Notes under the pieces: model-generated
The model's database searches: none
What the model was told of the DNA's origin: nothing
The model's input: only the letters and a program-made list of their open reading frames with translations
Made by a program: the position numbers and the translations under genes
In this document: positions 4,933-43,842 of the stretch, piece by piece
Layout: each line of letters opens with the position of its first letter
Position numbering within the stretch: the first letter of the stretch is position 1
From: Capillimicrobium parvum
GTDB taxonomy: Bacteria; Actinomycetota; Thermoleophilia; Solirubrobacterales; Solirubrobacteraceae
Direction of reading: 5' to 3'
NCBI RefSeq assembly: GCF_021172045.1
Contig: NZ_CP087164.1
Span: forward strand, 62,001 to 126,000
Length of the DNA stretch: 64,000 nucleotides

Positions 4933-5751
4933 CTAAGCGACGAGGCGGTAGAGCTCCTCCTCGGCGGACAGCGCGCTGCGCAGCGTGCGCTTGAGCGCAC
5001 TGTGGATCTGGCACACGCGGCTCTCGGACACGCCGAGCACCTCGCCGATCTCGGCCAGGGTCAGGTTCTTGACGTAGAGCATGACCGCGACCTCGCGCTC
5101 GCGGCGCGGGAGCTGCGCGAACGCCGTGCGGAACCTGTCCTTGAGCTCCTCCGTGGCGGCGGCGTGCTCGGGATCGAGGCGCTCGTCCTGGGAGACGAGG
5201 GTGTCGACGCGCTCGATGGTCGTGTCGTCGTCGGAGAGCACGAGCGCGTTGAGCGACGTGACGTCGGAGGAGACGATCTCGTCGAGGTGGCGGCGCAGCT
5301 CGCCGACGGTGATGCCCATGGCGTCGGCCAGCTCGTCGCGGGTGGGGCGGCGGCCGTGGAGGATCGAGAACTCCTCCGTCGCCTTGTTGATGTCGCGCTC
5401 CCAGCGGCGCACCGAGCGCGGCGCCCAGTCCTGGCGGCGCAGCTCGTCGAGCACGGCGCCGTGGATCCGGGTCCAGGCGTACTGCTCGAGCGTCGCGCCC
5501 TTCGCGGGGTCGTAGCGGTCGATGGAGACGATGAGCGCCTCCAGCCCGCAGGAGATGAAGTCCTCGACCTCCGCGTTGGCGGGCATCTCGCGGACCTTGC
5601 GGTACACGATGTACTTCACCATCGGGGCGAAGGTCAGCACCAGGCGGTCGCGCAGCGCCGCGTCCTTCGTGCGCCGGTAGTCGAGCCACAGGGCGAGGCT
5701 CTCGTCGGCGGAGAGGCGTCGCGCCGATGGTGGGGCGAGGGTGACGGACAT
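4933..5751 (-). CDS. fliA: Flagellar sigma factor sigma-28 (FliA/WhiG family)
   Basis: A 272-residue sigma-70-family factor of the three-domain type (sigma2, sigma3, sigma4; no region 1.1). Region 2 is at about residues 40-106 with VEDFISCGLEALIVSIDRYDP; region 3 follows at 110-180 with RRPTRDELADAMGIT; region 4 is at 212-258 with LPRREREVAVMLYVKNLTLAEIG and a helix-turn-helix GVSESRVCQIHS. This architecture and the EERL/DFIS-type motifs fit FliA/SigD/WhiG. ATG 5751 has a GAGGAG Shine-Dalgarno. It is the obvious reader of the thirteen CTCAAG-N14-GCCGAT promoters listed here. No anti-sigma factor flgM is recognisable nearby. Confidence 0.93.
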   Translation of the reverse strand: MSVTLAPPSARRLSADESLALWLDYRRTKDAALRDRLVLTFAPMVKYIVYRKVREMPANAEVEDFISCGLEALIVSIDRYDPAKGATLEQYAWTRIHGAVLDELRRQDWAPRSVRRWERDINKATEEFSILHGRRPTRDELADAMGITVGELRRHLDEIVSSDVTSLNALVLSDDDTTIERVDTLVSQDERLDPEHAAATEELKDRFRTAFAQLPRREREVAVMLYVKNLTLAEIGEVLGVSESRVCQIHSALKRTLRSALSAEEELYRLVA

Positions 5752-29047: not shown

Positions 29048-29097
29048 GGCCGCGACGGTACGCCCGGCGCGGTCCCAGCCGCCAGACGGAATTGGTC

Positions 29098-29742: not shown

Positions 29743-29755
29743 CCGGATCGGGGGC

Positions 29756-30910
29756 TCAGCCAGCGCCGCCTACCTCCAGCCGGACCGTCGTGCCGGCGCC
29801 GGGACTCGACCGGATCGCGAGGCGGCCCCCGAGCCGCGCGGCGCGCTCCTCCATCGACGTCAGCCCGAGGCGCCGCGAGCGCAGCTCGGGATCGGCGGGA
29901 TCGAAGCCGGCGCCGTCGTCGTGGATCTCGAGCACCAGCCCGCCGTCCGCGCCGGCGACGCGCACGCCGATCTCGCGGGCGCCCGCGTGGCGCAGCGCGT
30001 TGTGCAGCGCCTCCTGGGCGATCCGCAGCAGCTCGCGGTCGCGCCGCGGGTCGACGTCGCCCGCCGCGTCGGCCAGATCGACCTCCAGGCCGATCGAGAT
30101 GTCGTGGACGCTGCGCAGGACCGCGACGTGCTTGCGCAGCACGGCGGCCAGGCCGTCGCGTTCGAGGTCCGGCGGGCGCAGCTCGCCGACGAGGTCGCGC
30201 AGCTCGTCGAGCGCCTCGCGGGCCAGCTCGCCCGTCCGCGCGACCCGCTCGCCCGCCGCCGCCGGGTCGCGCTCCACGAGCGTGGCCGCCGCCTCGGCGC
30301 TGAGCACGACGCTGAAGAGCTTCTGGCTGACCGCGTCGTGCAGCTCGAGGGCGAGCCGGTTGCGCTCGGAGACGATCGACAGCTCGCGGCTGCGCTCGAG
30401 CAGCCGCGCGTTCGTGATCGCGATCGCGGCGTGCGCGGCGAGGAGCTCCAGGAGCTCCTGGTCGGCGGCGCCGAACGTCCCGGCGCCCTCCTTCTCCGTG
30501 AGGTAGAAGGCGCCGATCACGCCGTCGGGCGCGACGATCGGCACGCCGAGGTACGAGCGCATGTCGGGGTGGCCGCGCGGCCACCAGCCGCGGAAGCGCG
30601 GGTGGGCGTGCATGTCCGCCATCCGCACCGGCACGTCGGTCTCGAGCATCGCCCCGAGCACCCCGTGCGTTCGTGGCAGCGGCCCGAGGGACGCGACCAG
30701 CTCGTCGCTCATCCCGGAGACGAGGAATGCGCTGAAGCCGCCGTCGCCGTCGGGGATGCCGAGCGCCGCGTAGCGCGCGCCGGCCAGCTCGCGCGCGCGG
30801 TCCACGAGCTCCTGGAGCACCTCTTCGACCGAGCGTTGGGCGGCGACCGCCAGGACCGCGTCGCTGACGGCGCGCAGGGCGGGGCTGAGGCGTTCGGGCT
30901 CCGGGCTCAC
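29756..30910 (-). CDS. GAF-domain sensor histidine kinase (HisKA_3 type)
   Basis: A 384-residue cytosolic kinase without membrane segments. A GAF domain covers about residues 20-165 (VEEVLQELVDRARELAGARYAALGIPD...RSYLGVPIVAPDGVIGAFYLTEKEGA); the HisKA_3 dimerisation region has the phosphoacceptor His in NRLALELHDAVSQKLFSVV (about 190); the ATPase domain ends with LRIAQEALHNALRHAGA, GAGFDP and RRLGLTSMEERAARLGG. The sequence resembles the actinobacterial DevS-like kinases, though no haem-binding residues could be verified. GTG 30910 overlaps the TetR stop, so TetR, kinase and regulator are one operon. Confidence 0.88.
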   Translation of the reverse strand: MSPEPERLSPALRAVSDAVLAVAAQRSVEEVLQELVDRARELAGARYAALGIPDGDGGFSAFLVSGMSDELVASLGPLPRTHGVLGAMLETDVPVRMADMHAHPRFRGWWPRGHPDMRSYLGVPIVAPDGVIGAFYLTEKEGAGTFGAADQELLELLAAHAAIAITNARLLERSRELSIVSERNRLALELHDAVSQKLFSVVLSAEAAATLVERDPAAAGERVARTGELAREALDELRDLVGELRPPDLERDGLAAVLRKHVAVLRSVHDISIGLEVDLADAAGDVDPRRDRELLRIAQEALHNALRHAGAREIGVRVAGADGGLVLEIHDDGAGFDPADPELRSRRLGLTSMEERAARLGGRLAIRSSPGAGTTVRLEVGGAG

Positions 30911-31497
30911 TGGCAACGGGTCATCGCGGTCGCCGTCTGCGCCGCCGCGGTCGCGTCGAGCCCGGCGCGGTGCAGGGTCCGCCACGTGTGGAAGTCGAGC
31001 GCCACCGCGACGGCCGCCGCGACGCGCTCGCGCCGTCGCCCGCGCGCGCGGAATCCGGCGACCAGGATCTCGTGCATGCGGCCCAGCACGGGCGCGATGC
31101 GGACCCCGACGACCCACTGGGTCGTCTCGTGGTCCTCGATGTCGCGCATGATGTTGGCGAGCAGCCCCTCGTTCTCGGCGTAGTAGGCGTACAGGAGCGC
31201 GACCGCCCGTTGCACGCGCTCCAGGGGGTCGTCGACGTCCAGCAGCGGCTCGGGGTCGGGCAGCGGCCGTCGTTGCAGATGCAGGCCCGAGCAGGCCATG
31301 ACGAGCTCGCGCTCGTCCGGGAAGTGGCTGTACACGGTGTGGCGCTGCACGCGCGCGCGCTCGGCGATCGCGCTGACGCTGGTGCGCGCCGGCCCCAGCT
31401 CGGAGTGCAGCGCGACCGTCGCCTCGACGATCCGCCGCCTGGTCTCCTGCTGGCGCTCGGCCCGCTTGCGGAGCTCGTACCTGCGCGTCGTTGTCAC
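30907..31497 (-). CDS. TetR-family regulator
   Basis: A 196-residue regulator: residues 1-55 hold the TetR helix-turn-helix (TRRRIVEATVALHSELGPARTSVSAIAERARVQRHTVYSHFPDERELV). The ligand domain is helical. GTG 31497 is chosen as the first start upstream of the conserved region; the longer frame would cross the divergent promoter. It lies head-to-head with the MBL-fold gene, and a good operator-like palindrome (31553-31572) is located just downstream of that gene's promoter, so TetR likely represses it. Its operon continues into the sensor kinase. Confidence 0.85.
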   Translation of the reverse strand: MTTTRRYELRKRAERQQETRRRIVEATVALHSELGPARTSVSAIAERARVQRHTVYSHFPDERELVMACSGLHLQRRPLPDPEPLLDVDDPLERVQRAVALLYAYYAENEGLLANIMRDIEDHETTQWVVGVRIAPVLGRMHEILVAGFRARGRRRERVAAAVAVALDFHTWRTLHRAGLDATAAAQTATAMTRCQ

Positions 31498-31520
31498 TGC
31501 ACAGGAGTGTACCCCGAAAC

Positions 31521-31550
31521 TTGACAGCGCACGCACGGCTCCGGTATGAA
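31521..31550 (+). promoter_or_regulatory. Sigma-70-type promoter of the MBL-fold gene
   Basis: TTGACA (31521-31526), 18 bases, TATGAA (31545-31550): close to the housekeeping consensus and the most AT-rich stretch nearby. The start codon GTG 31592 is 41 bases downstream with TGGAGGA before it. Confidence 0.75.
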
Positions 31551-31552
31551 TC

Positions 31553-31572
31553 GCTGCACAGCACTGTTCAGC
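31553..31572. promoter_or_regulatory. Probable TetR operator
   Basis: GCTGCACAG-CA-CTGTTCAGC is a 20-bp palindrome (9-bp arms, one mismatch) beginning two bases after the -10 element of the MBL-fold gene, where repressor binding would block transcription. Confidence 0.6.
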
Positions 31573-31591
31573 CAAACGCCTGGAGGACGTC

Positions 31592-32356
31592 GTGAGCACG
31601 CGGATCGACCACATCACCGGCGGCATCTACCGGATCTCCACGTGGGTCCCCGAGTACCGGCTCACGTTCAACCAGTTCCTCATCGACGACGAGCGGCCGA
31701 CGCTCGTGCACACCGGCGAGTACGACCGCTACGACGGGATCCGCAAGGCGATCTCGGAGGTCCTCGATCCGGCGACGCTGGCGAACATCATCCTGCTGCA
31801 CTGGGAGGGCGACGAGAACGGCGGGATGGACCGCTTCATGGCCGAGGCCAAGGGCTGCGAGCTGGTCGGGTCCGCGCTGTCGATCGCGCTCAACGCCCGC
31901 GGCTTCGGCGTGCACGAGCGCGTCCGCGGCTTCACCGACGGCGAGACGCTCGACCTCGGCCGCCACAAGCTGCGCTTCTGGGAGACCCCGCACGTCCACC
32001 ACTGGGACTCGATGATGGTCGTCGAGGAGACCACGAACAGCCTCTTCCCGTCGGATCTGTACCTGCAGCCGGGCGAGCTGCCGCCCGTCGTCGACGAGAA
32101 CCTCTCCGAGGAGATGATCGCGACGTACCGCGCGGTCGGCATCTTCGCCCACGAGAACCCGGTCCGGTCGGTGTCCGAGCGCGTGGAGCGGCTCGCGCCC
32201 GACTGGGTGCACGCCATGCACGGCGGCACGGTGACCGGCGCCGCGCTGCCCGCCTTCAACGAGGCGCTGCGCGAGAAGGAGTTCGCCTACGCCGGGTGGG
32301 TGCTCGGCCGCGACCTGGCCGCCCAGCAGGCGACGCCGATCCCGCACGCCGGATAG
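31592..32356 (+). CDS. MBL-fold (ODP/flavodiiron-like) metalloprotein
   Basis: A 254-residue protein similar to the metallo-beta-lactamase domain of flavodiiron proteins (ODP family): IYRISTWVPEYRLTFNQFLIDDERPTLVHTG at the N-terminus and the metal ligand motif ILLHWEGDENGGM (H-x-E-x-D), then HVHHWDSMMV and HGGTVTG near the end. No flavodoxin domain follows, so it would need an external electron carrier if it reduces oxygen or nitric oxide. Alternatively it is an oxygen-sensing protein. GTG 31592 has a TGGAGGA site. Divergent TetR gene and palindrome suggest inducible expression. Confidence 0.75.
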   Translation: MSTRIDHITGGIYRISTWVPEYRLTFNQFLIDDERPTLVHTGEYDRYDGIRKAISEVLDPATLANIILLHWEGDENGGMDRFMAEAKGCELVGSALSIALNARGFGVHERVRGFTDGETLDLGRHKLRFWETPHVHHWDSMMVVEETTNSLFPSDLYLQPGELPPVVDENLSEEMIATYRAVGIFAHENPVRSVSERVERLAPDWVHAMHGGTVTGAALPAFNEALREKEFAYAGWVLGRDLAAQQATPIPHAG

Positions 32357-32392: not shown

Positions 32393-32752
32393 CTACGCGA
32401 GGGCCTTGGCGACGGCGTCGAGGACGCGGTCGGGCTGGAACGGCTTGACGACGAAGTCCTTGGCGCCGAGCTTGATCGACTCGAGGACCTTGCTCTCCTG
32501 CCCGAGGGCGGAGCACATGATCACGCGGGCGGCAGGGTCGATCGTGATGATCTCCCGCAGCGCGGCGAGGCCGTCCTTCTCCGGCATCGTGATGTCCAGG
32601 GTGGTGAGGTCGGGACGCAGTTCCTGCCAGCGGTCGACGGCCTCCGCGCCGTTGCCGGCTTCGCCGACCACGTCGTGGCCGCCCTTGGTGAGGGCGTCGG
32701 TGACCATCTTGCGCATGAACGCTGCGTCGTCGACCACGAGGACACGGGCCAT
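32393..32752 (-). CDS. cheY: Chemotaxis response regulator CheY
   Basis: A 119-residue single receiver domain: VLVVDDAAFMRKM (acidic pocket Asp8/Asp9), phosphoacceptor Asp53 in TLDITMPEKDG, the switch Ser81 in MCSALGQ and Lys103 in VVKPFQP. It is the last gene of the cheW-fliM-fliY transcription unit, so the phosphorylated form is made next to its switch target (FliM/FliY) and its phosphatases (CheC, FliY). The gene ends 36 bp from the convergent MBL-fold gene. Confidence 0.95.
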   Translation of the reverse strand: MARVLVVDDAAFMRKMVTDALTKGGHDVVGEAGNGAEAVDRWQELRPDLTTLDITMPEKDGLAALREIITIDPAARVIMCSALGQESKVLESIKLGAKDFVVKPFQPDRVLDAVAKALA

Positions 32753-32755
32753 GGG

Positions 32756-33679
32756 TCAGTCTCCTTCTGTGGTTGTTGGTGAAGGGTGGATCGAGGGGGA
32801 GGGGCAAGCGAGTCGTGGCGGCTCGGGAGGGCCGCCGGCGCCGCGCACACCGTGCACGGACTCGATGCGCACGGCCCACTCGTTCTCGTCGGTGACGAGC
32901 AGGCGGCCGGTCGCGAAGCGCAGGTCGTCGACGAACAGGTCGATCGGGTCCTCGACCTCGCGGTCGAGCTCGACCACCGCGCCGACCGGCAGCCCGACCA
33001 GGCTGCTGAGCGGCATCCGCACGCGCCCGAGCTCGGCCCAGACACGCAGCGGCATGTCCTGCACGAGCGGGCTCAGCGGGCCGTCCTGGTATTCGGACGC
33101 GTACTCCGTCGCCAGCTCGCTGAGCGCGCGGTTCATGCGCACGATGAACGCGTTCGGGATGAACTGCACGAGCCGGCACGGCTCGCCGAGCACCGAGAAC
33201 TGGGCGGTGATGGCGTGCGGCGTCGTGTCGAACGCCTCGACCGCGGCCGTCGCGTCGGTGAGCCGGTGGATCTCGGGTGGCGCGATCTCGACTTCCTTGC
33301 CGAGCACCTTGCTGGTCGCCATCGCCGCCGACGACATCATCTGGTTCATGGCCTCGCCCATCGCCGACAGGTCGAGGTCGGTGAGCTCGGCGTCGTCGTC
33401 GGGCAGCTCGGCGCCCATCATCGACGCGGCCAGCCGGCGCGCGCCCCTGATCGTCATCACGAAGACGTTGCCGCCGGTGACGCCGTCGACGTAGGAGACG
33501 CCGGTGGCGACCGAGGGGGTCGGGATGCCCTCCATGGGATGGGTGCCCGGAGGCACGGCGGCGACCAGGCCGTCCACGATCTGGCCGTCCTCGGGGCAGA
33601 AGATGCGCAGCACGCCGGCCACCGCTTCCGTGGTGGACCCGCCGATCTGCAGCAGGGCGTCGTCGGCGGTGCCGCTCAT
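32756..33679 (-). CDS. fliY: Flagellar motor switch phosphatase FliY (CheC-FliN fusion)
   Basis: A 307-residue protein: the N-terminal two thirds are CheC-like, including SAMGEAMN (S-x-x-x-E-x-x-N phosphatase motif) with the P-P following about 22 residues later, and the C-terminal domain (DMPLRVWAELGRVRMPLSSLVGLPVGAVVELDREVEDPIDLFVDDLRFATGRLLVTDENEWAVRI) is a FliN/SPOA domain. A Pro/Ser tail follows. It combines CheY-P dephosphorylation with a C-ring role, as in Bacillus. ATG 33679 overlaps the fliM stop. A short FliN is separately encoded at 26.2 kb. Confidence 0.93.
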   Translation of the reverse strand: MSGTADDALLQIGGSTTEAVAGVLRIFCPEDGQIVDGLVAAVPPGTHPMEGIPTPSVATGVSYVDGVTGGNVFVMTIRGARRLAASMMGAELPDDDAELTDLDLSAMGEAMNQMMSSAAMATSKVLGKEVEIAPPEIHRLTDATAAVEAFDTTPHAITAQFSVLGEPCRLVQFIPNAFIVRMNRALSELATEYASEYQDGPLSPLVQDMPLRVWAELGRVRMPLSSLVGLPVGAVVELDREVEDPIDLFVDDLRFATGRLLVTDENEWAVRIESVHGVRGAGGPPEPPRLACPSPSIHPSPTTTEGD

Positions 33680-34656
33680 CGAGCTGCCTCCCTCAGGGTC
33701 TCGGCCACCTGCACGGCGCGCCAGCGGCCGCAGCGGCCGGGCTGGACGCGATGTACCGGCACCTGGTCGGCCATGAGCGTCATGCCGCGCTCCACGGGCG
33801 TGTCGAACGTCACGACGTCGCCGGGGCGCAGCGCCAGCACCTCGTCGAGGCGCAGGGTCGTCGCGGCGACCTCGGCCCGGACGGGCACCGAGACCTCGCG
33901 CAGCGCCGCGTCGACCGCCTCGGCGATCCGCGGGTCGCGCGCGGCGTCGTCCTCGTGGCCGAACGCGCTGGCCACGCCGCCCGCCGAGCGGTACGGCACG
34001 AGCAGCACGACGGTCGACGACAGCTTCTCCAGCTTGCCCTCCATGACGAGCGCCAGCGTCGGCTCGCTCGCGTTGGCGACGTTCGCCGACTCCGGCTGGG
34101 AGTCCAGGCGCAGCAGCTCGAGCTCGGTGCGCGACAGCTCCTCCCACACGAGCGACAGCTCCTCCGTGAGCGCATGGAAGAAGCGCCGGGCGACGACGAG
34201 GTCGATGTCGGTGAGCTTGCGCTCGCGCGCGGTCTGCGTGCCGCCGAGGAGGCGCTCGACGAAGTTGACGACGAGCGACTGCTCGGCGCTGAGCAGCATG
34301 CGCGCCTCGCTGGCGTCCCCGCCGTCGATGACGCCGCAGACCGAGTCGTACGGGATCTGCGCGTGTGCGTTGAACCACGTGAGCTGCATGACGTCGATGA
34401 CCTCGATCTCCACGTCGACGCGCAGCTCGGCCGACAGCCGGCGGTTCGCCGTGCGGCAGAACTGCTCGAGCGCGCGCTTGATGCGCCGCTCCTGGTCGGC
34501 GGTGAACTTCGTCGGGTGCTGGAAGTCGATGGTCCGCAGCCCGCGCGCGCGCCGCGTCGGGTGCGATGCGATCTGGACCTCGGTCTTCAGCCTGCCCTTC
34601 GCCGCCTGGTCGAACAGCCTGGCGATCTGGTCCTCGTTGAGCAGATCCCCGCTCAT
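33676..34656 (-). CDS. fliM: Flagellar motor switch protein FliM
   Basis: A 326-residue C-ring protein. N-terminal LLNEDQIARLFDQAAKG resembles the LSQ[ED]EID-A-L CheY-binding peptide, followed by the FliM middle domain (DFQHPTKFTADQERRIKRALEQFCRTANRRLSAELR) and the C-terminal SPOA-type domain (REVSVPVRAEVAATTLRLDEVLALRPGDVVTFD). The typical GGxG motif reads FVERLLGGTQ. ATG 34656 with GGGAGG. It precedes fliY with ATGA overlap. Confidence 0.95.
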   Translation of the reverse strand: MSGDLLNEDQIARLFDQAAKGRLKTEVQIASHPTRRARGLRTIDFQHPTKFTADQERRIKRALEQFCRTANRRLSAELRVDVEIEVIDVMQLTWFNAHAQIPYDSVCGVIDGGDASEARMLLSAEQSLVVNFVERLLGGTQTARERKLTDIDLVVARRFFHALTEELSLVWEELSRTELELLRLDSQPESANVANASEPTLALVMEGKLEKLSSTVVLLVPYRSAGGVASAFGHEDDAARDPRIAEAVDAALREVSVPVRAEVAATTLRLDEVLALRPGDVVTFDTPVERGMTLMADQVPVHRVQPGRCGRWRAVQVAETLREAAR

Positions 34657-34708
34657 CGAGTCGCCTCCCTCAGGGTCGAGATCGTCGTGGATGAGGCCGC
34701 GCGGCGTC

Positions 34709-35206
34709 TCATCGCCCGTACACCTGCTCCTCCGTGGCCGCGACCTCGCGGACGGTGACGCGCACGCCCTCGACGTGCACGCGGACGGTGCGGCCCCGGC
34801 TGCCGCCGGTCTTCGCGTGGCGGATCGGGATCGAGAGACGGTCGAGCTGCTCGCGCACCGCCGCTTCGTTGCGCGCGCCGATGGTGGCACCGCCCTCGCC
34901 GCTGAACGTGAACATCTGCGCGCCGCCGACGATGACCGCCTCCAGGCGCGCGGCGCCGAGCGCCTTCACGCGCTGCGCGAGCAGCGGCACGCCGGTATCG
35001 GCGAACTTCGCCGGGGCGCCGGTCGCGTCGCCAGTGGGCAGCATGACGTGCGCGAGGCCGACGATCGGCCGGCGCACGTCGAACAGCGCGACGCCGACGC
35101 ACGATCCCAGGCCGATGGTCACGAGCACCTCGCCGGGCGTCGCCGACGCGGCCAGCTCGCCCATCCGCACCATGAGCTCGGACACGATCACGGTGACGCC
35201 ACCCAT
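34709..35206 (-). CDS. cheD: Chemotaxis receptor deamidase CheD
   Basis: A 165-residue cysteine hydrolase that deamidates chemoreceptor glutamines and stimulates CheC. The catalytic Cys is in TIGLGSCVGVALFD and the His in GLAHVMLP, as in the CheD family; GGAQMFTFSG (GG-[AS]-x-M) is also typical. It lies directly between cheC and fliM, the usual arrangement with its regulator CheC. Confidence 0.95.
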   Translation of the reverse strand: MGGVTVIVSELMVRMGELAASATPGEVLVTIGLGSCVGVALFDVRRPIVGLAHVMLPTGDATGAPAKFADTGVPLLAQRVKALGAARLEAVIVGGAQMFTFSGEGGATIGARNEAAVREQLDRLSIPIRHAKTGGSRGRTVRVHVEGVRVTVREVAATEEQVYGR

Positions 35207-35253
35207 CGCTCCGGGACGCTGGTGTGCGCCGACCCGCTGGGCCTCACGATCGA

Positions 35254-35850
35254 CTACCCCAGCCCCAGCCGCGTGAGCAGCTCGCCGATCCCGTCGTGGC
35301 TCGGGAGCATGAGGAACGTCAGCTCGCACTGCTGGCCCTCGACGATGAGCCGGGAGTCCATGAGCAGCGCCAGGTTCGTCTGGTCCGCCTGCGTGGCGAG
35401 CACCGTGGCGAGGATCGCCCCGACCATGTCCGCGACGGTCTCCGGCGGTCGCGGCTCCAGCTCGAGGCCGGTCATCGCGGCGAGCGAGTTGACGTACGAG
35501 CAGCCGAGGATGTTGCCGATCTCGCCCAGGGCGGAGCGGCCGTCCTCCGTGCCCGGCTCGACGCCGAGCAGCGAGCACAGCGTCGCCTCGTCGTCGGGCG
35601 GGAAGAGCAGCAGCACCGTCGCGTCGAGGTCGCCGAAGATCGGCAGGACGACGCCGGTGGCCAGCGTCGCCGGTTCGCCGGCGGCCTCGACCGCGTCGGC
35701 GAGCGGCAGCGCGGCGGCGGCGGGCACGTTGATGTCGACCGGCTGGCCGAGCATGCCCGACAGGGCGGTGCCGGCGTTGCCGGAGCCGATGTTGGCCAGC
35801 TCGCGCAGCGCGTCGAGCTGCATGTCCGTGTACTGGGGCGGTGAGGTCAT
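35254..35850 (-). CDS. cheC: CheY-P phosphatase CheC
   Basis: A 198-residue protein with two phosphatase motifs, DALRELAN (residues 13-20) and SALGEIGN (about 106-113), both of the D/S-x-x-x-E-x-x-N type, followed by Pro about 22 residues later. Two intact sites indicate an active phosphatase of the CheC class rather than CheX. In Bacillus, CheC also binds CheD. ATG 35850 is 20 bp after cheA. Confidence 0.95.
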   Translation of the reverse strand: MTSPPQYTDMQLDALRELANIGSGNAGTALSGMLGQPVDINVPAAAALPLADAVEAAGEPATLATGVVLPIFGDLDATVLLLFPPDDEATLCSLLGVEPGTEDGRSALGEIGNILGCSYVNSLAAMTGLELEPRPPETVADMVGAILATVLATQADQTNLALLMDSRLIVEGQQCELTFLMLPSHDGIGELLTRLGLG

Positions 35851-35870
35851 GGGGGTCAGGGTCCTTGGGG

Positions 35871-37865
35871 CTAGGCGGCGGCGAGGCCGGCGGACGGGTG
35901 CAGGGCATCGCAGTCGACGATCAGGGCGATGTCGCCGCTGGACAGCACGGCCCCGCCGGAGACGGCCGCGCTGTCGGAGACGTCGGGCGGCAGCGGACGG
36001 GTGACGAGCTCCCGCTGGCCGATCAGCTTGTTGACGGCCAGCGCCATTGAGCGCTCACCGGAGGTCACGATCACGGCGTGCTCCCCGTCGGACGCGCGGC
36101 CGCGGCCGAGCGTCTCGCCGCCGTCGAGCAGCGGGAAGACGTCGTCGCGCATGACGAGCATCCGCGAGCCCGCCGCGGAGCGGACCGTGTGGTCCTCCAG
36201 GCGGATCGTGCGCTCCACGCGCTCCAGCGGCACGGCGAACGGGTCGCCGTCGATCTCGATGAGCAGCGCCGCCATGATCGCCAGGGTCAGCGGCAGGCGG
36301 ATCTGCGCGGTGGTGCCGACGCCCATCTCGGAGATGAAGCCGACGTCGCCGCCGAGCTCCCGGATGGTCGTGCGGACCGCGTCCATGCCGACGCCGCGTC
36401 CCGAGATGTCGCTCGTGGTCTCGGCGGTCGAGAAGCCGGCCGTGAACAACAGCTCCGCGGCGCGCGCCTGGTCGACCGAGTCGGCCTGCTCGGGCGTCAG
36501 CAGCCCCCGCTCGACGGCCTTGGCGGCGACCTTGGCCGGGTCGATGCCGCGCCCGTCGTCGCGCACGCTGATGACGACGTTGCCGCCCATGTGCTTGGCG
36601 GAGATCTCGAGCGTGGCCGTGGCGGGCTTGCCCGCCACCTCGCGGTCGGCGGCCGGCTCGAGACCGTGGTCGAGCGCGTTGCGCACGAGGTGGACGAGCG
36701 GGTCGCCGAGGGCGTCGACGACGGTGCGGTCGAGCTCGGTGTCCTGTCCGACGAGCTTGAGCTCGACCTGCTTGCCGAGCTTGCCCGACAGGTCGCGCAC
36801 CAGGCGCGGGAAGCGCAGGAAGACGGCCTCCACCGGGATCATCCGGACCTGCATCACCATCGACTGCAGCGACTGCGAGGCGCGCGAGAGGTCGGCCATC
36901 GCCTGCGACAGCCCCGGCACGTCGGCCTGGCCGGCGAGCGACTCGACGTGCGTGCGGTGCACGACGAGCTCGCCCATGAAGTGCATGAGCTGGTCGAGGC
37001 GGGCGGCGTCGACGCGGACGCTGGTGGTCGTCGCCTTGCCGCGCGGTGCCGCGCCGGTGCCGCGCTCGGCCTTGGCCGCGGGCGCGGCGGCGACCGCCTC
37101 GCCCTCGCCCTCGACGGCGGGCTCCGCGCCGAAGTCCTCGTCGCTGAGCTCGTCGACGGTCGCGGCGGCGACGTCGGCGACGTTCGTCGCCGCGGCGTGG
37201 ACTGCGTCGTCGTCGGCCTCGGCGGCCAGCCATGCCTCCACGACGCCCCCGTCGAACGCGTCGACCTTGTCGACGGCCGGGAACGAGGCGAGGACCGAGC
37301 CCTGCTCGCCCAGGGCGTTGAGGACCATGAACGCCCGCACGGAGGGCATGGAGCACTCGTCGCCGAGGGCGACCTCGACGTGCACGATGCGCCGCCCGCC
37401 GGCGCGCTCGGCCACCACCTCCGGCGGAATCCGTTCCACCCACCCCACCGGGCCGCCCTTGCGGTGGTGCTTCTGCTCCGGCGTGCGCTCGCGGACGAGG
37501 CTCTGCAGCCGCTCGATGAGCGCCGCGGGCGCAAGGTCCTCGGCGCCGGTCTGCTCGATCTTGCCGACCTGCTCCTCGAGCACGTCGAGGCACTCGAGCA
37601 GCACGTCGATCGCGTCGCGCGGCAGGCCGCCGGTGCGCTGGCGCAGCAGCTCGAACACGTCCTCCATCCGATGCGTGAGCGCCGCCATCCGGGCGAAGCC
37701 CATCGTGGCGCTCATGCCCTTCATGGAGTGGGCGATGCGGAAGATCTCGTTGACGGTCTCCTGATCGTCGGGGGTCTCCTCGATCCGGACGACGGCAAGG
37801 TTGAGCTCCTGGAGGTGCTCGCGCGCCTCGGCCAGGAACATCGGCATGTACTCGGAGACGTCCAT
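35871..37865 (-). CDS. cheA: Chemotaxis histidine kinase CheA
   Basis: A 664-residue kinase with the five CheA domains in order: P1 phosphotransfer with phosphorylated His46 (RIAHSMKGM), P2 (about 150-240) between acidic linkers, P3 dimerisation (about 285-350, MGELVVHRTHVESLAGQ), P4 ATPase (390-540: LVHLVRNALDHGLEPAADRE; DDGRGIDP; LFTAGFSTAETTSDISGRGVGMDAV) and P5 CheW-like (about 540-664). It phosphorylates CheY and CheB in response to receptors. No receptor gene is nearby. Confidence 0.97.
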   Translation of the reverse strand: MDVSEYMPMFLAEAREHLQELNLAVVRIEETPDDQETVNEIFRIAHSMKGMSATMGFARMAALTHRMEDVFELLRQRTGGLPRDAIDVLLECLDVLEEQVGKIEQTGAEDLAPAALIERLQSLVRERTPEQKHHRKGGPVGWVERIPPEVVAERAGGRRIVHVEVALGDECSMPSVRAFMVLNALGEQGSVLASFPAVDKVDAFDGGVVEAWLAAEADDDAVHAAATNVADVAAATVDELSDEDFGAEPAVEGEGEAVAAAPAAKAERGTGAAPRGKATTTSVRVDAARLDQLMHFMGELVVHRTHVESLAGQADVPGLSQAMADLSRASQSLQSMVMQVRMIPVEAVFLRFPRLVRDLSGKLGKQVELKLVGQDTELDRTVVDALGDPLVHLVRNALDHGLEPAADREVAGKPATATLEISAKHMGGNVVISVRDDGRGIDPAKVAAKAVERGLLTPEQADSVDQARAAELLFTAGFSTAETTSDISGRGVGMDAVRTTIRELGGDVGFISEMGVGTTAQIRLPLTLAIMAALLIEIDGDPFAVPLERVERTIRLEDHTVRSAAGSRMLVMRDDVFPLLDGGETLGRGRASDGEHAVIVTSGERSMALAVNKLIGQRELVTRPLPPDVSDSAAVSGGAVLSSGDIALIVDCDALHPSAGLAAA

Positions 37866-37872
37866 GATCGGT

Positions 37873-38814
37873 TCAGGCCTTGCGGTAGACGAAGGGGTGG
37901 GTCGGCGTCAGGTCCATCTCGCGCGGGTCCTGCACCCGCTCGGTCGAGCCGATGACGAGGTAGCCGCCCGGGCGCAGGGCCTGCGCGAGCCGCGCGTGCA
38001 GGGCGTTGCGGACGTCGTCGGTGAAGTAGATGACGGTGTTGCGGCAGAGCACCAGGTCGAGGCGGCCGGGCGCCACGGTCATGCGCAGCAGGTCGCCGAC
38101 CTCGAAGCGGCACGCGTCGCGCAGCTCCCGGCGCGCCCGCCAGCCGCCGTCGACCGCGTCGAAGTGGCGCTCGAGCAGCGCGCGCGGCGCCGTGCGGGCG
38201 TCCTCGTCGGTGAAGCGGCCCTCGTGGGCGCGCTCGACCATGCGCTTGTCGATGTCGGTGCCGCGGATGGTCGCGCGGGCGCCGGGGGCGTTCTCACGGC
38301 ACAGCGCGGCGAGCGTGTAGGCCTCGGCGCCGTAGGAGCAGCCGGCGCTCCACGCCGTGATCCCGCGCCCCGCGGCGGCGAGCTCGGGCAGGATCGAGTC
38401 GCCGATCAGCGCCCACTGCTCGGGGTTGCGCCAGAGCTGGGAGACGTTGATCGTCATGCGGTCGAGGAAGTCGTCGAGCTCGGACGGCTCGCGGCGCAGC
38501 ACGGTGAGGTAGTCGGTCAGGCCGTCGCTGCCGCGCCGGTGGGCGAAGGAGCGGATGCGGCGCTCCATCTGACCGCGCTTGTACTGGGCGAGATCCACGT
38601 GACAGAGGCCGCGCACGCCGTCGCAGAAGGTCTCGTAGTCGTCGCGGCTGGCACCCGCGGCGCGGGGGACGTTCGTGGCTGCGGACCCGCGGGGTCCACC
38701 CGGTGCCGTCGCGCCGCGGGCCGAGTCGTTGGCTTGGGTGGGCTCGCAGGGCCCACCCGATGAAGTCGCGCCGCGGGCTGAGTCGTCGGTGTGGGTGGGC
38801 CCGCAGGGCCTCAT
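37873..38814 (-). CDS. cheR: Chemotaxis methyltransferase CheR with N-terminal repeat extension
   Basis: A 313-residue receptor methyltransferase: CheR_N (about residues 60-110, YKRGQMERRIRSFAHRRGSDGLTDYLTVL) and CheR (115-313) with ITINVSQLWRNPEQW-like start, SAM-binding AWSAGCSYGAEAYTLA, DIDKRMVERAHEGRF and LVLCRNTVIYF. Residues 1-50 are not family sequence; they are encoded by a 57-bp unit duplicated in tandem (ARGAT..GGP..PT type repeats, 38692-38805). ATG 38814 overlaps the cheB stop. An internal start after the repeat would give a normal-sized CheR. Confidence 0.93.
   Translation of the reverse strand: MRPCGPTHTDDSARGATSSGGPCEPTQANDSARGATAPGGPRGSAATNVPRAAGASRDDYETFCDGVRGLCHVDLAQYKRGQMERRIRSFAHRRGSDGLTDYLTVLRREPSELDDFLDRMTINVSQLWRNPEQWALIGDSILPELAAAGRGITAWSAGCSYGAEAYTLAALCRENAPGARATIRGTDIDKRMVERAHEGRFTDEDARTAPRALLERHFDAVDGGWRARRELRDACRFEVGDLLRMTVAPGRLDLVLCRNTVIYFTDDVRNALHARLAQALRPGGYLVIGSTERVQDPREMDLTPTHPFVYRKA
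38692..38805. repeat. 57-bp in-frame tandem duplication in the cheR 5' end
   Basis: Units 38692-38748 and 38749-38805 are alike (for example both contain CGCGCCGCGGGC and GTGGGTGGGC) and keep the reading frame. A related GGACCCGCGGGGTC palindrome at 38684-38697 precedes them and recurs near 680-694 (after flgG) and 49818-49833 (start of flhF). Confidence 0.75.
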
Positions 38815-39893
38815 GCTCCGGCCTCCTGGGTGATCGCCTGGGGGAGCTCGCTCAGGTCGACGATCGCGTCGGCCAGGCCGGCCTCGGCCACCGCGCGCGG
38901 CATGCCGTAGACGGTGCAGCTCGACTCCGCCTCGACGAGCACCCGCCCGCCGCGGCGCTTGACCTCGCGTGCGCCGTCGAGGCCGTCGCGACCCATGCCG
39001 GTCAGCACGACCAGCAGCGTCCGCTCGCCGTAGGCGGCGGCGACGTCGACGATGGTGAGGTCCGCCCGCGGGCGCAGCGCGCCGATGGGCGGCGCGTCCG
39101 AGAGGAGCGCGCGGCGGCCCTCGGCGAGGCGCAGGTGCGACCCGCCGGGCGCCAGCAGCGCCAGGCACGGGTCGAGCGACTCGGTGCCGGACGCCTCGAC
39201 GATGCTCAGGCGGCTGGCGCGGTCCAGCCGCTGCGCCAGCGACGCGGTGAACCCGGCCGGCATGTGCTGCACGATCAGCGTTCCGGCGCCAAGCCGCGCG
39301 GGCAGCTTGGGCATCAGGTCCGCGAGGGCGCGCGGGCCGCCGGTCGAGGAGGCGATGACGACCGCGCGGGCGGTGCGCGAGGCGGGCCGTGCCGCCGGGC
39401 CGCCCACCCGCCGCGGCGTGCGCGGCGCCGCCGGGCGCTTGAGGTGGCCGTTGCCGATCCCGGTCAGGCGCGGACGCCGCGACGCGGTGGCGGCGCGCAC
39501 CTTGTCGCCGAGCTCGCAGACGAACGACGAGAGCGGCTCGCCCGCGGCCGGCTTGGCGACCAGATCGAAGGCCCCCTCGGCCAGCGCGTCCACCGCGCGG
39601 GCGCCGTGGACGGGCGAGAAGGCCGAGACGACCACCACCGGGACGCCGGAGGCGGGGTGGGCGGGATTGGATCGCAGCTCGCGCAGCACGCCCATGCCGT
39701 CGAGGCCGGGCATCGTGAGGTCGAGCGTCATCGCGGCGGGACGGTGGCGCCGGCAGAGTGCCAGCGCCTCGTCGCCGTCCGCGGCGGCGCCGACCACGGT
39801 GAAGCCCTCCTTCTCGAGGGCGTTCGCAACGATCCGGCGCATCAGGCTCGAGTCGTCGGCGACGACGATCCGGGCATCGGTGGCGGTGGACAT
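38811..39893 (-). CDS. cheB: Chemotaxis methylesterase/deamidase CheB
   Basis: A 360-residue protein: receiver domain at 1-125 (IVVADDSSLMRRIVANAL; Asp58 in TLDLTMPGLDGMGVL) and methylesterase domain at about 165-355 with the catalytic triad of CheB: Ser in VIASSTGGPRAL, His in LIVQHMPAGFTASLAQRLD and Asp in VLTGMGRDGLDGA. It removes methyl groups from receptors after CheA phosphorylation. Thirty bases after cheW, before cheR. Confidence 0.96.
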   Translation of the reverse strand: MSTATDARIVVADDSSLMRRIVANALEKEGFTVVGAAADGDEALALCRRHRPAAMTLDLTMPGLDGMGVLRELRSNPAHPASGVPVVVVSAFSPVHGARAVDALAEGAFDLVAKPAAGEPLSSFVCELGDKVRAATASRRPRLTGIGNGHLKRPAAPRTPRRVGGPAARPASRTARAVVIASSTGGPRALADLMPKLPARLGAGTLIVQHMPAGFTASLAQRLDRASRLSIVEASGTESLDPCLALLAPGGSHLRLAEGRRALLSDAPPIGALRPRADLTIVDVAAAYGERTLLVVLTGMGRDGLDGAREVKRRGGRVLVEAESSCTVYGMPRAVAEAGLADAIVDLSELPQAITQEAGA

Positions 39894-39923: not shown

Positions 39924-40376
39924 TCAGACGGTCTCGGCGACCAGCTCGGTGTCGGGTACGCCGCCGCCGAAGAGGCCGACCGGATCCAGCAGCACGACCA
40001 GGCGCTGGTCGATCTTCGCGATGGCCTCGATCGCGGGGTCGCCCGCGGCCGGGACGGTGTCGAGCGCGTCGACGTCGACCGTGAGGACCTCCTCCACGTC
40101 GTCGACGATGACGCCGGCCATGTCGCTGGCGGTCTCGACGATGACGATCTTCGCGTGCTCGGGGCGCTCGGACGGCAGCCCCAGCCGGGCGGCGAGGTCG
40201 TAGACCGGCACGATCTTCCCGCGCAGGGAGATGACGCCGCGGACCCACGCCTCGTCGGAGGCGACCGAGCGGGGCTCGGTCCACCGGATGATCTCGTGCA
40301 CCTGCGTGATGGGCAACGCGTACTCCTCGTCGCCGAGCGAGAAGACGACGAGCTGGCGGTCGGACTCGGTGGACAT
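39924..40376 (-). CDS. cheW: Chemotaxis coupling protein CheW
   Basis: A 150-residue SH3-like coupling protein: QLVVFSLGDEEYALPITQVHEIIRW at the N-terminus, RGVISLRGKIVPVYDLAARLGLP and VIVDDVEEVLTVD are the family motifs. It links receptors to CheA. As first gene of the minus-strand chemotaxis operon it has its own sigma-28-type promoter (40414-40443). Confidence 0.96.
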   Translation of the reverse strand: MSTESDRQLVVFSLGDEEYALPITQVHEIIRWTEPRSVASDEAWVRGVISLRGKIVPVYDLAARLGLPSERPEHAKIVIVETASDMAGVIVDDVEEVLTVDVDALDTVPAAGDPAIEAIAKIDQRLVVLLDPVGLFGGGVPDTELVAETV

Positions 40377-40413
40377 GCAAGGACCTCGTAGGAGCTTGTG
40401 GCTGACTACCGGG

Positions 40414-40443
40414 TTTGGTCGGCCGCGCGGTGCCCCACTTGAG
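40414..40443 (-). promoter_or_regulatory. Sigma-28-type promoter of the cheW-cheY operon
   Basis: Minus strand: CTCAAG (40443-40438), 14 bases, GCCGACCAAA (40423-40414). It is back to back with the fliO promoter. Confidence 0.8.
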
Positions 40444-40452
40444 GGGCTCAAG
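40438..40452. promoter_or_regulatory. Shared palindrome of two back-to-back -35 elements
   Basis: CTTGAG-GGG-CTCAAG: the -35 hexamers of the divergent cheW and fliO promoters form a perfect 15-bp palindrome separated by only three bases, so two sigma-28 holoenzymes could hardly bind at once. Confidence 0.75.
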
Positions 40453-40476
40453 TGGCCGGCGGACCGACCGACTACC
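40447..40476 (+). promoter_or_regulatory. Sigma-28-type promoter of the fliO-flhB operon
   Basis: CTCAAG (40447-40452), 14 bases, ACCGACTACC (40467-40476), 45 bases before the fliO ATG. Confidence 0.75.
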
Positions 40477-40521
40477 GGGCGGACCGGGTGGGCGGGTGTC
40501 CCATCGAGTCACCTCAGACGA

Positions 40522-41034
40522 ATGTCGATTCCCCACTTCCGCAAGGCCGTGACGGCGGCCTCGGCGATGCTCCTCGTGCTGCCCGCGTATGCGTACGCGG
40601 CACCCACCGGCACGGGCGAGGACACGCCGCTGAACCTGCCGACGAGCGATCCCAAGCCGCTGGGCTCCGGCGGCGGCGGGGGCAGCCTCGTGCGCACCTT
40701 CGTCGGCCTGGCGATCGTGATCGCCGTCATCTACGGCATCGCGTGGGTGCTGCGCCAGGTCAAGTCCTCGCGCGAGGAGCGCACCCGCGGCAACGGCCTG
40801 GCGACAGCCGCCGTCGTCGCCCTCGGGCCCGGCCGCTCGCTGCACCTCGTCCGTGCCGGCCGCGAGCTCGTCCTCGTCGGCGTCGCCGAGCACGGCGTCG
40901 TCCCGATCCGCACCTACACCGAGGATGAGGCGCGCCGGCTCGGCCTCGACGCCAGCGACGACGAGCCGCCGCCGTCCGACGGCAAGCGCCGCCCGAGCTT
41001 CATCGACGCGCTGCGCGACCGGACGGCCCGCTGA
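40522..41034 (+). CDS. fliO: Flagellar export protein FliO
   Basis: A 170-residue membrane protein with a cleavable-looking signal (MSIPHFRKAVTAASAMLLVLPAYAYA), a short linker, one membrane helix (residues about 53-74, LVRTFVGLAIVIAVIYGIAWVLRQVK) and a cytoplasmic domain GLATAAVVALGPGRSLHLVRAGRELVLVGVAEHGVVPIRTYTEDEA, which matches FliO (V-x-x-L-x-[LV]-G-x-x-x-x-[LV]-x-[LV]-V-x-[VI]-G-x-[ER]). It helps FliP assemble. Start ATG 40522. Confidence 0.9.
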   Translation: MSIPHFRKAVTAASAMLLVLPAYAYAAPTGTGEDTPLNLPTSDPKPLGSGGGGGSLVRTFVGLAIVIAVIYGIAWVLRQVKSSREERTRGNGLATAAVVALGPGRSLHLVRAGRELVLVGVAEHGVVPIRTYTEDEARRLGLDASDDEPPPSDGKRRPSFIDALRDRTAR

Positions 41035-41666
41035 TGGGCTCGGGCTCGAACGCCGTCCAGCTCCTGCTGTTGATCGCCGGGCTCACGCTGATCCCCGCGA
41101 TGCTCTTCTGCGTCACCGGCTTCACGCGGATCCTCATCGTCCTCGGCTTCATCCGCAGCGGCCTCGGCACCCAGAGCGCGCCACCCAACCAGGTGCTCGT
41201 CGGCATCGCGGTGTTCCTGACGATCTTCGTCATGGCACCGACCTTCGGCGAGATCAAGAAGGTGGCGATCGACCCGCTGAAGGACGACAAGATCACCCAG
41301 CAGCAGGCGCTCGAGCGCGGTCAGGTCCCCCTGCGGGAGTTCATGTTCAAGCAGACGCGCGAGAAGGACCTGGCGCTGTTCGTCAAGCTCGCCAAGCAGC
41401 CGCAGCCCAAGACGCGCGCCGACGTGCCGACGTGGGTCCTCATCCCCGCGTTCATCATCTCCGAGCTGAAGACGGCGTTCCAGATCGGCTTCCTGATCTT
41501 CCTGCCGTTCCTGGTCATCGACCTCGTCGTCAGTACCACCTTGATGTCGATGGGCATGGTGATGCTGCCGCCCGTCTTCATCGCCCTGCCGTTCAAGATC
41601 CTGCTCTTCGTGCTGGTCGACGGCTGGGACCTCGTCACCCAATCGCTCGTGCAGAGCTTCCATTGA
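41034..41666 (+). CDS. fliP: Flagellar export-gate protein FliP
   Basis: A 210-residue polytopic protein: LLLLIAGLTLIPAMLFCVTGFTRILIVLGFIRSGLGTQSAPPNQVLVGIAVFLTIFVM at the start and ISELKTAFQIGFLIFLPFLVIDLVVSTTLMSMGMVMLPPVFIALPFKILLFVLVDGW at the end are the classical FliP signatures. Like other actinobacterial FliPs it lacks an N-terminal signal peptide extension. TGATG overlap with fliO. Confidence 0.97.
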   Translation: MGSGSNAVQLLLLIAGLTLIPAMLFCVTGFTRILIVLGFIRSGLGTQSAPPNQVLVGIAVFLTIFVMAPTFGEIKKVAIDPLKDDKITQQQALERGQVPLREFMFKQTREKDLALFVKLAKQPQPKTRADVPTWVLIPAFIISELKTAFQIGFLIFLPFLVIDLVVSTTLMSMGMVMLPPVFIALPFKILLFVLVDGWDLVTQSLVQSFH

Positions 41667-41682
41667 GGACGGACTGCCCGCC

Positions 41683-41955
41683 ATGGACCAAGACGTCGTC
41701 GTCAGCCTCGCCACGCAGGCGCTCAGCCTGACCATGAAGGTCGCGCTGCCGCTCCTCCTCGCCGGCCTGACCGTCGGCCTGGTCGTCAGCGTGTTCCAAT
41801 CGGTCACGCAGATCCAGGAGCAGACGCTGACCTTCATCCCCAAGATCCTGGCCACGTTCGCCGTGCTGCTGGTCGGCGGCCCGTGGATGCTCAACCAGCT
41901 GCTGAGCTACGCGCAGGAGCTCTGGCTCAGCATCCCGTCGCTCGTCGGCGCCTAG
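41683..41955 (+). CDS. fliQ: Flagellar export-gate protein FliQ
   Basis: A 90-residue protein with two membrane helices; VSLATQALSLTMKVALPLLLAGLTVGLVVSVFQSVTQIQEQTLTFIPKILATFAVLLVGGPWML is the complete FliQ pattern. Located between fliP and fliR. Confidence 0.97.
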   Translation: MDQDVVVSLATQALSLTMKVALPLLLAGLTVGLVVSVFQSVTQIQEQTLTFIPKILATFAVLLVGGPWMLNQLLSYAQELWLSIPSLVGA

Positions 41956-41984
41956 CGGCCGCGCCCGCCCCGCGCCGCCGCCCG

Positions 41985-42767
41985 ATGCCCGACGTCGTCC
42001 TGCAGCAGTTCGGGGCCCAGGCGATCACCGGCTTCTTCCTGGTGCTCGCGCGGGTCACGCCGCTGTTCTTCTTCGCTCCGTTGTTCTCGAGCAAGCTCGT
42101 GCCGGTGCGCGTGCGCGCGATCGTGGCCGTGGCCCTGGCCATCGGGCTGGCCCCGGTCGTCGCCGGCGGCGAGCACCTGCCGGCCGACCTGTGGACGATC
42201 GCGGGGCTGATCCTCAAGGAGCTGCTCGTCGGCATGGCGTTCGCGTTCGCGCTCGGTGCGCTGTTCGCGGCGCTCAGCGTGGCCGGGTCGTTCCTGGACT
42301 ACCTCATCGGCTTCTCGTTCGGCTCGCTGGTGGACCCCGTCAACGGCACGCAGACCACCGTGCTCGCCCAGCTCTACAGCCTGCTCGGCGTCGTCGTGTT
42401 CATCGCCATCGACGGGGACGCCTGGGTCCTCGCCGGTCTGGCCCACACCTACGACGTCGTGGGGGTGACGCAGATGCCGTCGCTCAGTGCGCTGGTCGGC
42501 GGCGCGGTGCAGTCGTTCGTCACCATCTTCAGCTCGGCGGTGCAGGTCGCGGGCCCGATCATGCTCGCGCTCGTCCTCACGGACGCGGCGTTCGGACTGG
42601 TGTCGCGGGTGGTGCCGTCGCTCAACGTCTTCGGCGTCGGCTTCCCGGTGAAGCTGCTCGTGGGGCTCATCCTGATCGGGGTGACGCTGCCGTACGTCGC
42701 CGGCTGGCTCTCGGGCGAGTTGCAGTCCAGCGTGTCGCAGGCGCTACACACCCTCAAGGTCGGATAG
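41985..42767 (+). CDS. fliR: Flagellar export-gate protein FliR
   Basis: A 260-residue, six-helix membrane protein: FFLVLARVTPLFFFAPLFSSKLVPVRVRAIVAVALAIGLAP and LIGFSFGSLVDPVNGTQTTVLAQLYSLLGVVVFIAIDG are family signatures; the C-terminal LNVFGVGFPVKLLVGLILIGVTLP is also typical. FliP, FliQ and FliR form the gate. ATG 41985 lies 29 bp after fliQ. Confidence 0.96.
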   Translation: MPDVVLQQFGAQAITGFFLVLARVTPLFFFAPLFSSKLVPVRVRAIVAVALAIGLAPVVAGGEHLPADLWTIAGLILKELLVGMAFAFALGALFAALSVAGSFLDYLIGFSFGSLVDPVNGTQTTVLAQLYSLLGVVVFIAIDGDAWVLAGLAHTYDVVGVTQMPSLSALVGGAVQSFVTIFSSAVQVAGPIMLALVLTDAAFGLVSRVVPSLNVFGVGFPVKLLVGLILIGVTLPYVAGWLSGELQSSVSQALHTLKVG

Positions 42768-42783
42768 GGGAGCTCTCCCGCCC

Positions 42784-43842
42784 GTGGCCGACAAGACCGA
42801 GAAGGCGACCCCGAAACGGCGCGACGAAGCGCGCAGGAAGGGGCAGGTCGCACGGTCGGCCGACCTCGGCGGCGCCGCCGTCCTGCTCGCGGGCCTGTTG
42901 GCGCTGGGTGCGACCGGGCCCGCCATCGCCGCCCACCTCGCGGACGTGATGACCTCCACGCTGCAGCTGACCGCCCACCCGGAGGTCGTCAGCGAGCGCG
43001 GCCTGCCGTCGGTCCTGCTGGCCATCTGCAAGCACGTCGGGTCGGCGCTGGCGCCCCTGGTGGGCGCGTGCGTCGCCGCGGCGATCGTCGTCAACGTCGT
43101 GATGGTGCGCCCGCGGCCGAGCATGGCCGGGCTGAAGCCGGACCCGAAGCGCCTGAACCCGATCAAGGGCGTCAAGAACATCTACGGCCCGCAGGCCGCC
43201 TTCGAGCTGGGCAAGTCGCTGACGAAGCTCACCGTCGTGGGGGCCATCGTCGCGGCCGCGCTCGTGCCGCAGCTCACCGAGCTCGGGGCGATGGTCGGCA
43301 TGGAGCCCGGCGAGCTCGCCGGGGCGATGGCCTCGAGCATCTTCTCCATGGCCAAGCGCGCGGCGATCGCCTACCTCGTCATCGGGGTGATCGACTTCGT
43401 CTGGCAGCGCCATCGCACGGACAAGTCGATGCGCATGGACAAGCAGGAGGTCAAGGACGAGGCCAAGCAGCAGCAGCTGCCGGCCGAGGTCCGGGGCGCG
43501 ATGCGCCGGCGCCAGATGGCCGCGTCGCGCGCGCGGATGATGACCGACGTGCCGACGGCCGACGTCGTCGTGACGAACCCGACGCACTACGCGGTGGCGC
43601 TGCGCTACGACGGGTCCAACCCCGCGCCCGAGGTCGTGGCGAAGGGCGTGGACCTGGTGGCGGCGCGCATCCGCGCGATCGCGAGCGAGCACGGTGTGGC
43701 GATCGTGCCGGACCCGCCGCTGGCGCGCACGCTGCACGCCTCGGTCGAGGTGGGGCACCAGATCCCCGAGGAGCTCTTCGGCGCCGTCGCGCAGCTCCTC
43801 GCGTTCGTTTACCGGACGAGGAAGGTGTTGACGACCCGATAA
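42784..43842 (+). CDS. flhB: Flagellar export switch protein FlhB
   Basis: A 352-residue protein: KTEKATPKRRDEARRKGQVARSADL start motif, four membrane segments, and the cytosolic domain with the autocleavage site NPTH (residues 265-268, TNPTHYAVALRYD). The final part (IPEELFGAVAQLLAFVYR) matches the FlhX gene at 4.55 kb. GTG 42784 follows fliR by 16 bp. It is the last gene of the fliO operon. Confidence 0.97.
   Translation: MADKTEKATPKRRDEARRKGQVARSADLGGAAVLLAGLLALGATGPAIAAHLADVMTSTLQLTAHPEVVSERGLPSVLLAICKHVGSALAPLVGACVAAAIVVNVVMVRPRPSMAGLKPDPKRLNPIKGVKNIYGPQAAFELGKSLTKLTVVGAIVAAALVPQLTELGAMVGMEPGELAGAMASSIFSMAKRAAIAYLVIGVIDFVWQRHRTDKSMRMDKQEVKDEAKQQQLPAEVRGAMRRRQMAASRARMMTDVPTADVVVTNPTHYAVALRYDGSNPAPEVVAKGVDLVAARIRAIASEHGVAIVPDPPLARTLHASVEVGHQIPEELFGAVAQLLAFVYRTRKVLTTR

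What the first reader, a model, noticed from the sequence alone, without database searches (positions are those of the whole stretch)
40438..40452. Two flagellar operons fired from one 15-bp palindrome
The -35 hexamers of the divergent cheW-cheY and fliO-flhB operons are CTTGAG-GGG-CTCAAG, a perfect palindrome. The two sites are so close that two RNA polymerases would collide, which would force mutually exclusive or alternately timed firing of chemotaxis and export-gate genes.
Basis: seen in the sequence. Interest (0 to 1): 0.65.

Follow-up and report, generated by a model that had tools for sequence, protein, structure and literature searches.

The report
Back-to-back flagellar promoters sharing one spot
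Two large flagellar gene sets that point in opposite directions start from two near-identical switches set back to back only 3 DNA letters apart, an arrangement conserved across one genus and apparently made when a block of chemotaxis genes flipped over; probably only one polymerase fits at a time, but that would balance the two gene sets rather than run them in turn.

Summary
The sequence observation holds. At 40438-40452 is CTTGAG-GGG-CTCAAG, the only such match in the 5.95 Mb genome. Each half is the -35 of a CTCAAG-N15-CCGA promoter of the FliA/WhiG (sigma-28) type: one reads into cheW...fliM...cheY, the other into fliO-P-Q-R-flhB. A matrix built only from 44 outgroup fliO promoters finds 14 clearly separated sites in the window; both promoters are among them. 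All three other held members of the genus keep both promoters, with -35 gaps of 3, 3 and 2 bp. In one, a half is CTAAAG: the dyad is broken but the promoter is good, so the dyad is a by-product of two abutting -35s, not an operator. In five other genera of the family the che operon lies upstream of fliO in the same direction; an inversion (or reversed re-insertion) in this genus explains the layout. Inferred start sites are about 70 bp apart, so two polymerases should not fit together. That gives second-scale exclusion under one sigma class, setting a ratio. Alternately timed expression of chemotaxis and export-gate genes is not supported. It is a new variant of known overlapping divergent promoters; no transcription was measured.

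The parts
40438..40443 (-). -35 element of the cheW-operon promoter (CTCAAG on the - strand)
   Evidence: conserved 4/4 in genus
40444..40446 (.). GGG gap between the two -35 elements (3, 3, 3 and 2 bp in the four genus members)
40447..40452 (+). -35 element of the fliO-operon promoter (CTCAAG; CTAAAG in G079)
40412..40422 (-). -10 region of the cheW promoter, CCGACCAAACC, 15 bp from its -35; start site inferred near 40410
   Evidence: start site is inference
40468..40478 (+). -10 region of the fliO promoter, CCGACTACCGG, 15 bp from its -35; start site inferred near 40480
   Evidence: start site is inference
39924..40376 (-). cheW, first gene of the che operon
   Evidence: PF01584 E 2e-35
32396..39893 (-). 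rest of the che operon: cheB, cheR, cheA, cheC, a cheD-like gene, fliM, a fliN/Y-like gene, cheY
   Evidence: cheD, fliN/Y and cheY named by eye
40522..41034 (+). fliO, first gene of the export-gate operon
   Evidence: PF04347 E 5e-10
41034..43842 (+). fliP, fliQ, fliR, flhB
   Evidence: PF00813 for fliP; gene order matched in relatives
4969..5643 (-). FliA/WhiG-type sigma factor of the flagellar cluster, candidate reader of both promoters
   Evidence: TIGR02479, 214.1 bits, over cut-off; sigma-70 regions 2, 3, 4; not shown to read these promoters

Best explanation
Two ancestral FliA/WhiG-class promoters were set back to back, their -35 elements 2-3 bp apart, when the 8-kb cheW...cheY block was inverted (or re-inserted in reverse) in the ancestor of this Solirubrobacteraceae genus. 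Shown by sequence: both promoter motifs, their conservation, and the co-directional gene order outside the genus; the inversion event is inferred. One FliA-type holoenzyme sitting on one -35 also covers the other, so the site holds one polymerase at a time, in either orientation (inferred from spacing and precedents). Because one sigma class serves both sides, both operons are on in the same cells; exclusion lasts only the seconds a polymerase occupies the site, so it sets a ratio, perhaps with lower noise, between the che/C-ring operon and the export-gate operon, with the fliO side favoured (inferred).
For: CTCAAG-N15-CCGA on both strands; independent matrix puts both among 14 clear sites; both -35s and both N15-CCGA kept in 4 of 4 genus members with gaps 3, 3, 3, 2; 19/20 element columns invariant against 28/124 elsewhere; CTAAAG in G079 breaks the dyad but is the -35 of half the outgroup fliO promoters; co-directional che and fliO operons in five other genera, cheW promoters in 11 of 15 outgroup loci and fliO promoters across the order; fliO side scores higher in all four species; FliA-type sigma in the cluster; single occupancy reported at other overlapping divergent promoters (PMC12825309, PMC4207663).
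Against: No transcript start, footprint or expression was measured. Start sites are inferred. Four genomes of one genus share ancestry, so conservation may partly be inertia. At basal activity E. coli bidirectional promoters show no marked competition. The cheW -10 is weak (16.1-18.9 bits), so its use is less certain. Three FliA/WhiG-type sigmas are present; different ones could read the two sides.
Confidence: 0.72

Rival explanations
1. The abutment is real but without consequence: both promoters fire too rarely for the polymerases to meet, and the layout is just the scar of an inversion.
For: All five E. coli bidirectional promoters tested behaved so at basal level (PMC12825309). The gap varies (2 or 3 bp) and the left -10 is degenerate.
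Against: Both -35s and both 15-bp spacings persist in four species while the left spacer has no invariant base. Flagellar promoters can be strong when FliA is free (general knowledge), and then competition would be expected.
Confidence: 0.2
2. One reading: the site is a timing switch that makes chemotaxis and export-gate genes fire alternately or in different stages.
For: Single occupancy is likely from the spacing. At pLS20 Pr/Pc, overlapping divergent promoters act as part of a switch (PMC4207663).
Against: Both promoters are of one sigma class. The pLS20 switch needs a dedicated regulator and none is seen here. The left operon also contains fliM, needed for the motor itself. Exclusion at a promoter lasts seconds.
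Confidence: 0.04
3. The dyad is the operator of a dimeric regulator that controls both operons.
For: In this genome the inverted repeat has 9-bp arms.
Against: G079 has CTTGAG-GT-CTAAAG, which breaks both symmetry and spacing; the outer arms are not conserved. Single CTCAAG sites with N15-CCGA stand before other flagellar genes.
Confidence: 0.03

Closest known systems
Bidirectional promoters of E. coli (Warman et al., PMC12825309)
   Same: Divergent transcription from one short, pseudo-symmetric DNA segment; two opposing polymerases cannot bind together; competition and noise effects measured there.
   Different: There the symmetric part is a shared -10 with start sites typically 10-23 bp apart; here each side has its own -10 and the symmetry centre lies between two -35s, start sites about 70 bp apart. 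Those authors exclude separate divergent promoters from the term.
Pr/Pc overlapping divergent promoters of plasmid pLS20 (PMC4207663)
   Same: Overlapping divergent promoters that polymerase is reported unable to occupy together.
   Different: There each promoter's -10 coincides with the other's -35, and a regulator (Rco) with DNA looping makes a switch; here the -35s abut and no regulator is known.
Lambda PR/PRM (from memory, not checked here)
   Same: Back-to-back divergent promoters with interference between polymerases.
   Different: Start sites there are about 82 bp apart and repressors decide; here they are closer and both sides use the flagellar sigma.
Flagellar promoters of Actinoplanes missouriensis, CTCA-N15-17-GCCGAA (Jang 2016, from memory; text not held)
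   Same: Same -35 core, similar spacing and -10 core before flagellar genes of an actinobacterium.
   Different: I do not recall abutting -35 pairs being described there; not checked.

Membership tests
FliA/WhiG-class (sigma-28) flagellar promoter | -35 CT(C/A)AAG and -10 core CCGA at 15-bp spacing, before flagellar or chemotaxis genes | tested here: met
   both sites
FliA/WhiG-class (sigma-28) flagellar promoter | A FliA/WhiG-type sigma factor encoded in the genome | tested here: met
   three over cut-off, one in the flagellar cluster
FliA/WhiG-class (sigma-28) flagellar promoter | Transcription depends on that sigma factor, with starts at the predicted sites | not testable with these tools
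   needs start-site mapping and a fliA deletion
Overlapping (mutually excluding) divergent promoters | Core elements so close that two holoenzyme footprints overlap | tested here: met
   -35s 2-3 bp apart in four species; footprint extent from literature and general knowledge
Overlapping (mutually excluding) divergent promoters | Measured interference between the two polymerases | not testable with these tools
   needs in vitro transcription or reporters
Bidirectional promoter sensu Warman et al. | Shared symmetric -10 element, start sites about 10-23 bp apart | tested here: not met
   two separate -10 regions at 40412-40422 and 40468-40478
Operator of a dimeric regulator | Dyad symmetry and spacing conserved as a unit | tested here: not met
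   G079 breaks both; outer arms not conserved

The most novel reading that the evidence does not exclude
The abutting -35 pair is kept by selection as a ratio-setter: obligate one-at-a-time occupancy by the flagellar-sigma polymerase couples che/C-ring output to export-gate output and lowers noise, a regulator-free balancing device created by one rearrangement.
Probability: 0.22. Interest if true: 0.6.

Novelty: new variant of a known kind. Interest (0 to 1): 0.4.

Why it matters
It is a clean natural example of two same-class promoters set back to back with nearly touching -35 elements, with a traceable origin and close outgroups in which the same two promoters are far apart. That makes the effect of polymerase exclusion on the balance of two operons directly testable. 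It also yields a promoter motif for the flagellar regulon of Solirubrobacteraceae, a little-studied group.

Tried and rejected
Operator or dyad reading: rejected on G079 and on single CTCAAG sites elsewhere. Terminator or RNA hairpin: the dyad lies upstream of both inferred start sites, so neither operon would transcribe it. Chance palindrome: rejected by uniqueness, matrix rank and conservation. A search for the layout across the order and in a 396-genome sample of the phylum gave the genus (gap 2-3) and only looser pairs elsewhere: G181 (gap 18) and G131 (gap 16) in the family, G340 and G588 in the phylum sample; the last two are not examined and may be chance. A loss of cheW promoter strength after the rearrangement was considered, but the four values lie within the outgroup range. 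The Actinoplanes promoter paper is not in the library and a search for its motif found nothing useful.

Full report
WHAT IS THERE. The window lies in a 5.95 Mb single-contig genome; the nearest named matches to its FliP are Solirubrobacteraceae and allied Solirubrobacterales. The window is 73.8% G+C. At 40438-40452 the sequence is CTTGAGGGGCTCAAG, the only CTTGAG-N3-CTCAAG in the genome. To its left, on the minus strand, is a che operon: cheW (39924-40376), cheB, cheR, cheA, cheC, a cheD-like gene, fliM, a fliN/Y-like gene and cheY (32396-32755). To its right, on the plus strand, are fliO, fliP, fliQ, fliR and flhB.

BOTH HALVES ARE -35 ELEMENTS. Each half is followed, in its own direction and at exactly 15 bp, by CCGA. 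The same CTCAAG-N15-CCGA signature stands before a flgB-like gene, flhA, flgF/G-like genes and others in the window. To avoid circularity I built a matrix only from 44 fliO promoters of genomes outside the genus and scanned both strands of the window. Fourteen sites score 16.8 bits or more and the next scores 8.6. The fliO site is 6th (23.7) and the cheW site 14th (16.8). The training sites were themselves picked with the pattern CT(C/A)AAG-N15-CCGA, so the matrix tests the rest of the -10 and the separation from background, not the core itself. The genome encodes three FliA/WhiG-type sigma factors over the family cut-off, one inside this flagellar cluster at 4969-5643; the other three genus members also have three each. 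Which of them reads these promoters is not known. The -10 resembles the flagellar consensus used for WhiG in Rubrobacter (-35 TAAA, -10 GCCGATAA; PMC8325347) and, from memory, the CTCA-N15-17-GCCGAA promoters mapped in Actinoplanes missouriensis (Jang 2016; text not held).

CONSERVATION. The three other held genus members (G077, G078, G079; CheW 87-94% identical in the aligned part) have the same divergent layout. They keep both -35s with gaps of 3, 3 and 2 bp, and N15-CCGA on both sides. Of the 20 element columns 19 are invariant, against 28 of 124 other intergenic columns (Fisher 4.5e-10; the four sequences share ancestry, so this is indicative only). None of the 15 left-spacer columns is invariant; 6 of the 15 right-spacer columns are. 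The one changed element base makes the fliO -35 of G079 CTAAAG. That breaks the dyad, but CTAAAG is the -35 of half the outgroup fliO promoters (22 of 44). This is the clearest sign that the palindrome is two promoters touching, and not an operator.

ORIGIN. In five other genera inspected (G060, G086, G194, G169, G094) the che operon lies upstream of fliOPQR-flhB in the same direction. A promoter of this class precedes cheW in 11 of 15 outgroup loci (scores 14.9-29.3) and precedes fliO in most genomes of the order that have the genes. Within the family the layout with a 2-3 bp gap is found only in this genus, in 4 of 4 members. The simplest account is an inversion, or re-insertion in reverse, of the 8-kb che block that left the two ancestral promoters back to back. 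The event itself is inferred.

HOW IT LIKELY WORKS. With start sites inferred 6-7 bp beyond the -10 (about 40480 and 40410), they are about 70 bp apart. A holoenzyme covers DNA to at least the upstream edge of its -35, and the sigma-28 enzyme can place alpha C-terminal domains near -30/-38 and -64/-72 (E. coli aer promoter with CRP, PMC2859248). Here those positions fall on the opposite -35 and beyond. Single occupancy is therefore the expected state, as stated for E. coli bidirectional promoters (PMC12825309) and for pLS20 Pr/Pc (PMC4207663). Exclusion lasts only as long as a polymerase sits at the site, and both sides use one sigma class, so the expected outcome is co-expression at a set ratio, possibly with lower noise, as measured for E. 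coli acrA under interference. The fliO side has the higher score in all four species (23.7-27.9 against 16.1-18.9), so it should win more often. That this matters in the cell is not shown: at basal activity the five tested E. coli cases showed little competition. Alternating stages of chemotaxis and export-gate expression would need a further signal, and none is seen.

STANDING. It works like overlapping divergent promoters. It is not a bidirectional promoter in the strict sense, since there is no shared -10. Abutting -35s of the FliA class, with a recent origin by rearrangement, make it a new variant of a known kind. Interest is moderate: the anatomy is solid and the outgroups make a good natural control, but the strong claim of forced alternation is not supported.

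Noticed in passing
window 5896, 8487, 12444, 13443, 23854, 40447, 47694, 51847, 54200, 61959, 62966 (+); 1574, 3922, 40443 (-): Fourteen FliA-class promoters stand out from background in this flagellar cluster, a ready promoter set for the regulon.
   Followed up: partly
L170 1501-1566 (G181): Another back-to-back pair of the same promoter class, gap 18 bp, between an flgF-like gene and a divergent flagellar gene group, by eye.
   Followed up: partly
L207 around 1500-1565 (G131): A back-to-back pair, gap 16 bp, between a sugar-nucleotide transferase-like and an epimerase-like gene, by eye; possibly sugar-modification genes in the flagellar regulon.
   Followed up: partly
window 40462-40486: The stretch around the fliO -10 (GGAC.G.CCGACTACCGG..GGA) is more conserved in the genus than the promoter core alone requires.
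   Followed up: no
window 27200-32350: Genes that look non-flagellar by eye (short-chain dehydrogenase-like, LuxR-type regulator, TetR-like, metallo-beta-lactamase-fold-like) lie next to the cheY end of the reversed che block, perhaps marking the other rearrangement boundary.
   Followed up: no
G000:C1:1036364 (+) and G000:C1:2078327 (-): Full CTCAAG-N15-CCGATNACC matches far from the flagellar cluster; possible distant regulon members such as chemoreceptors.
   Followed up: no
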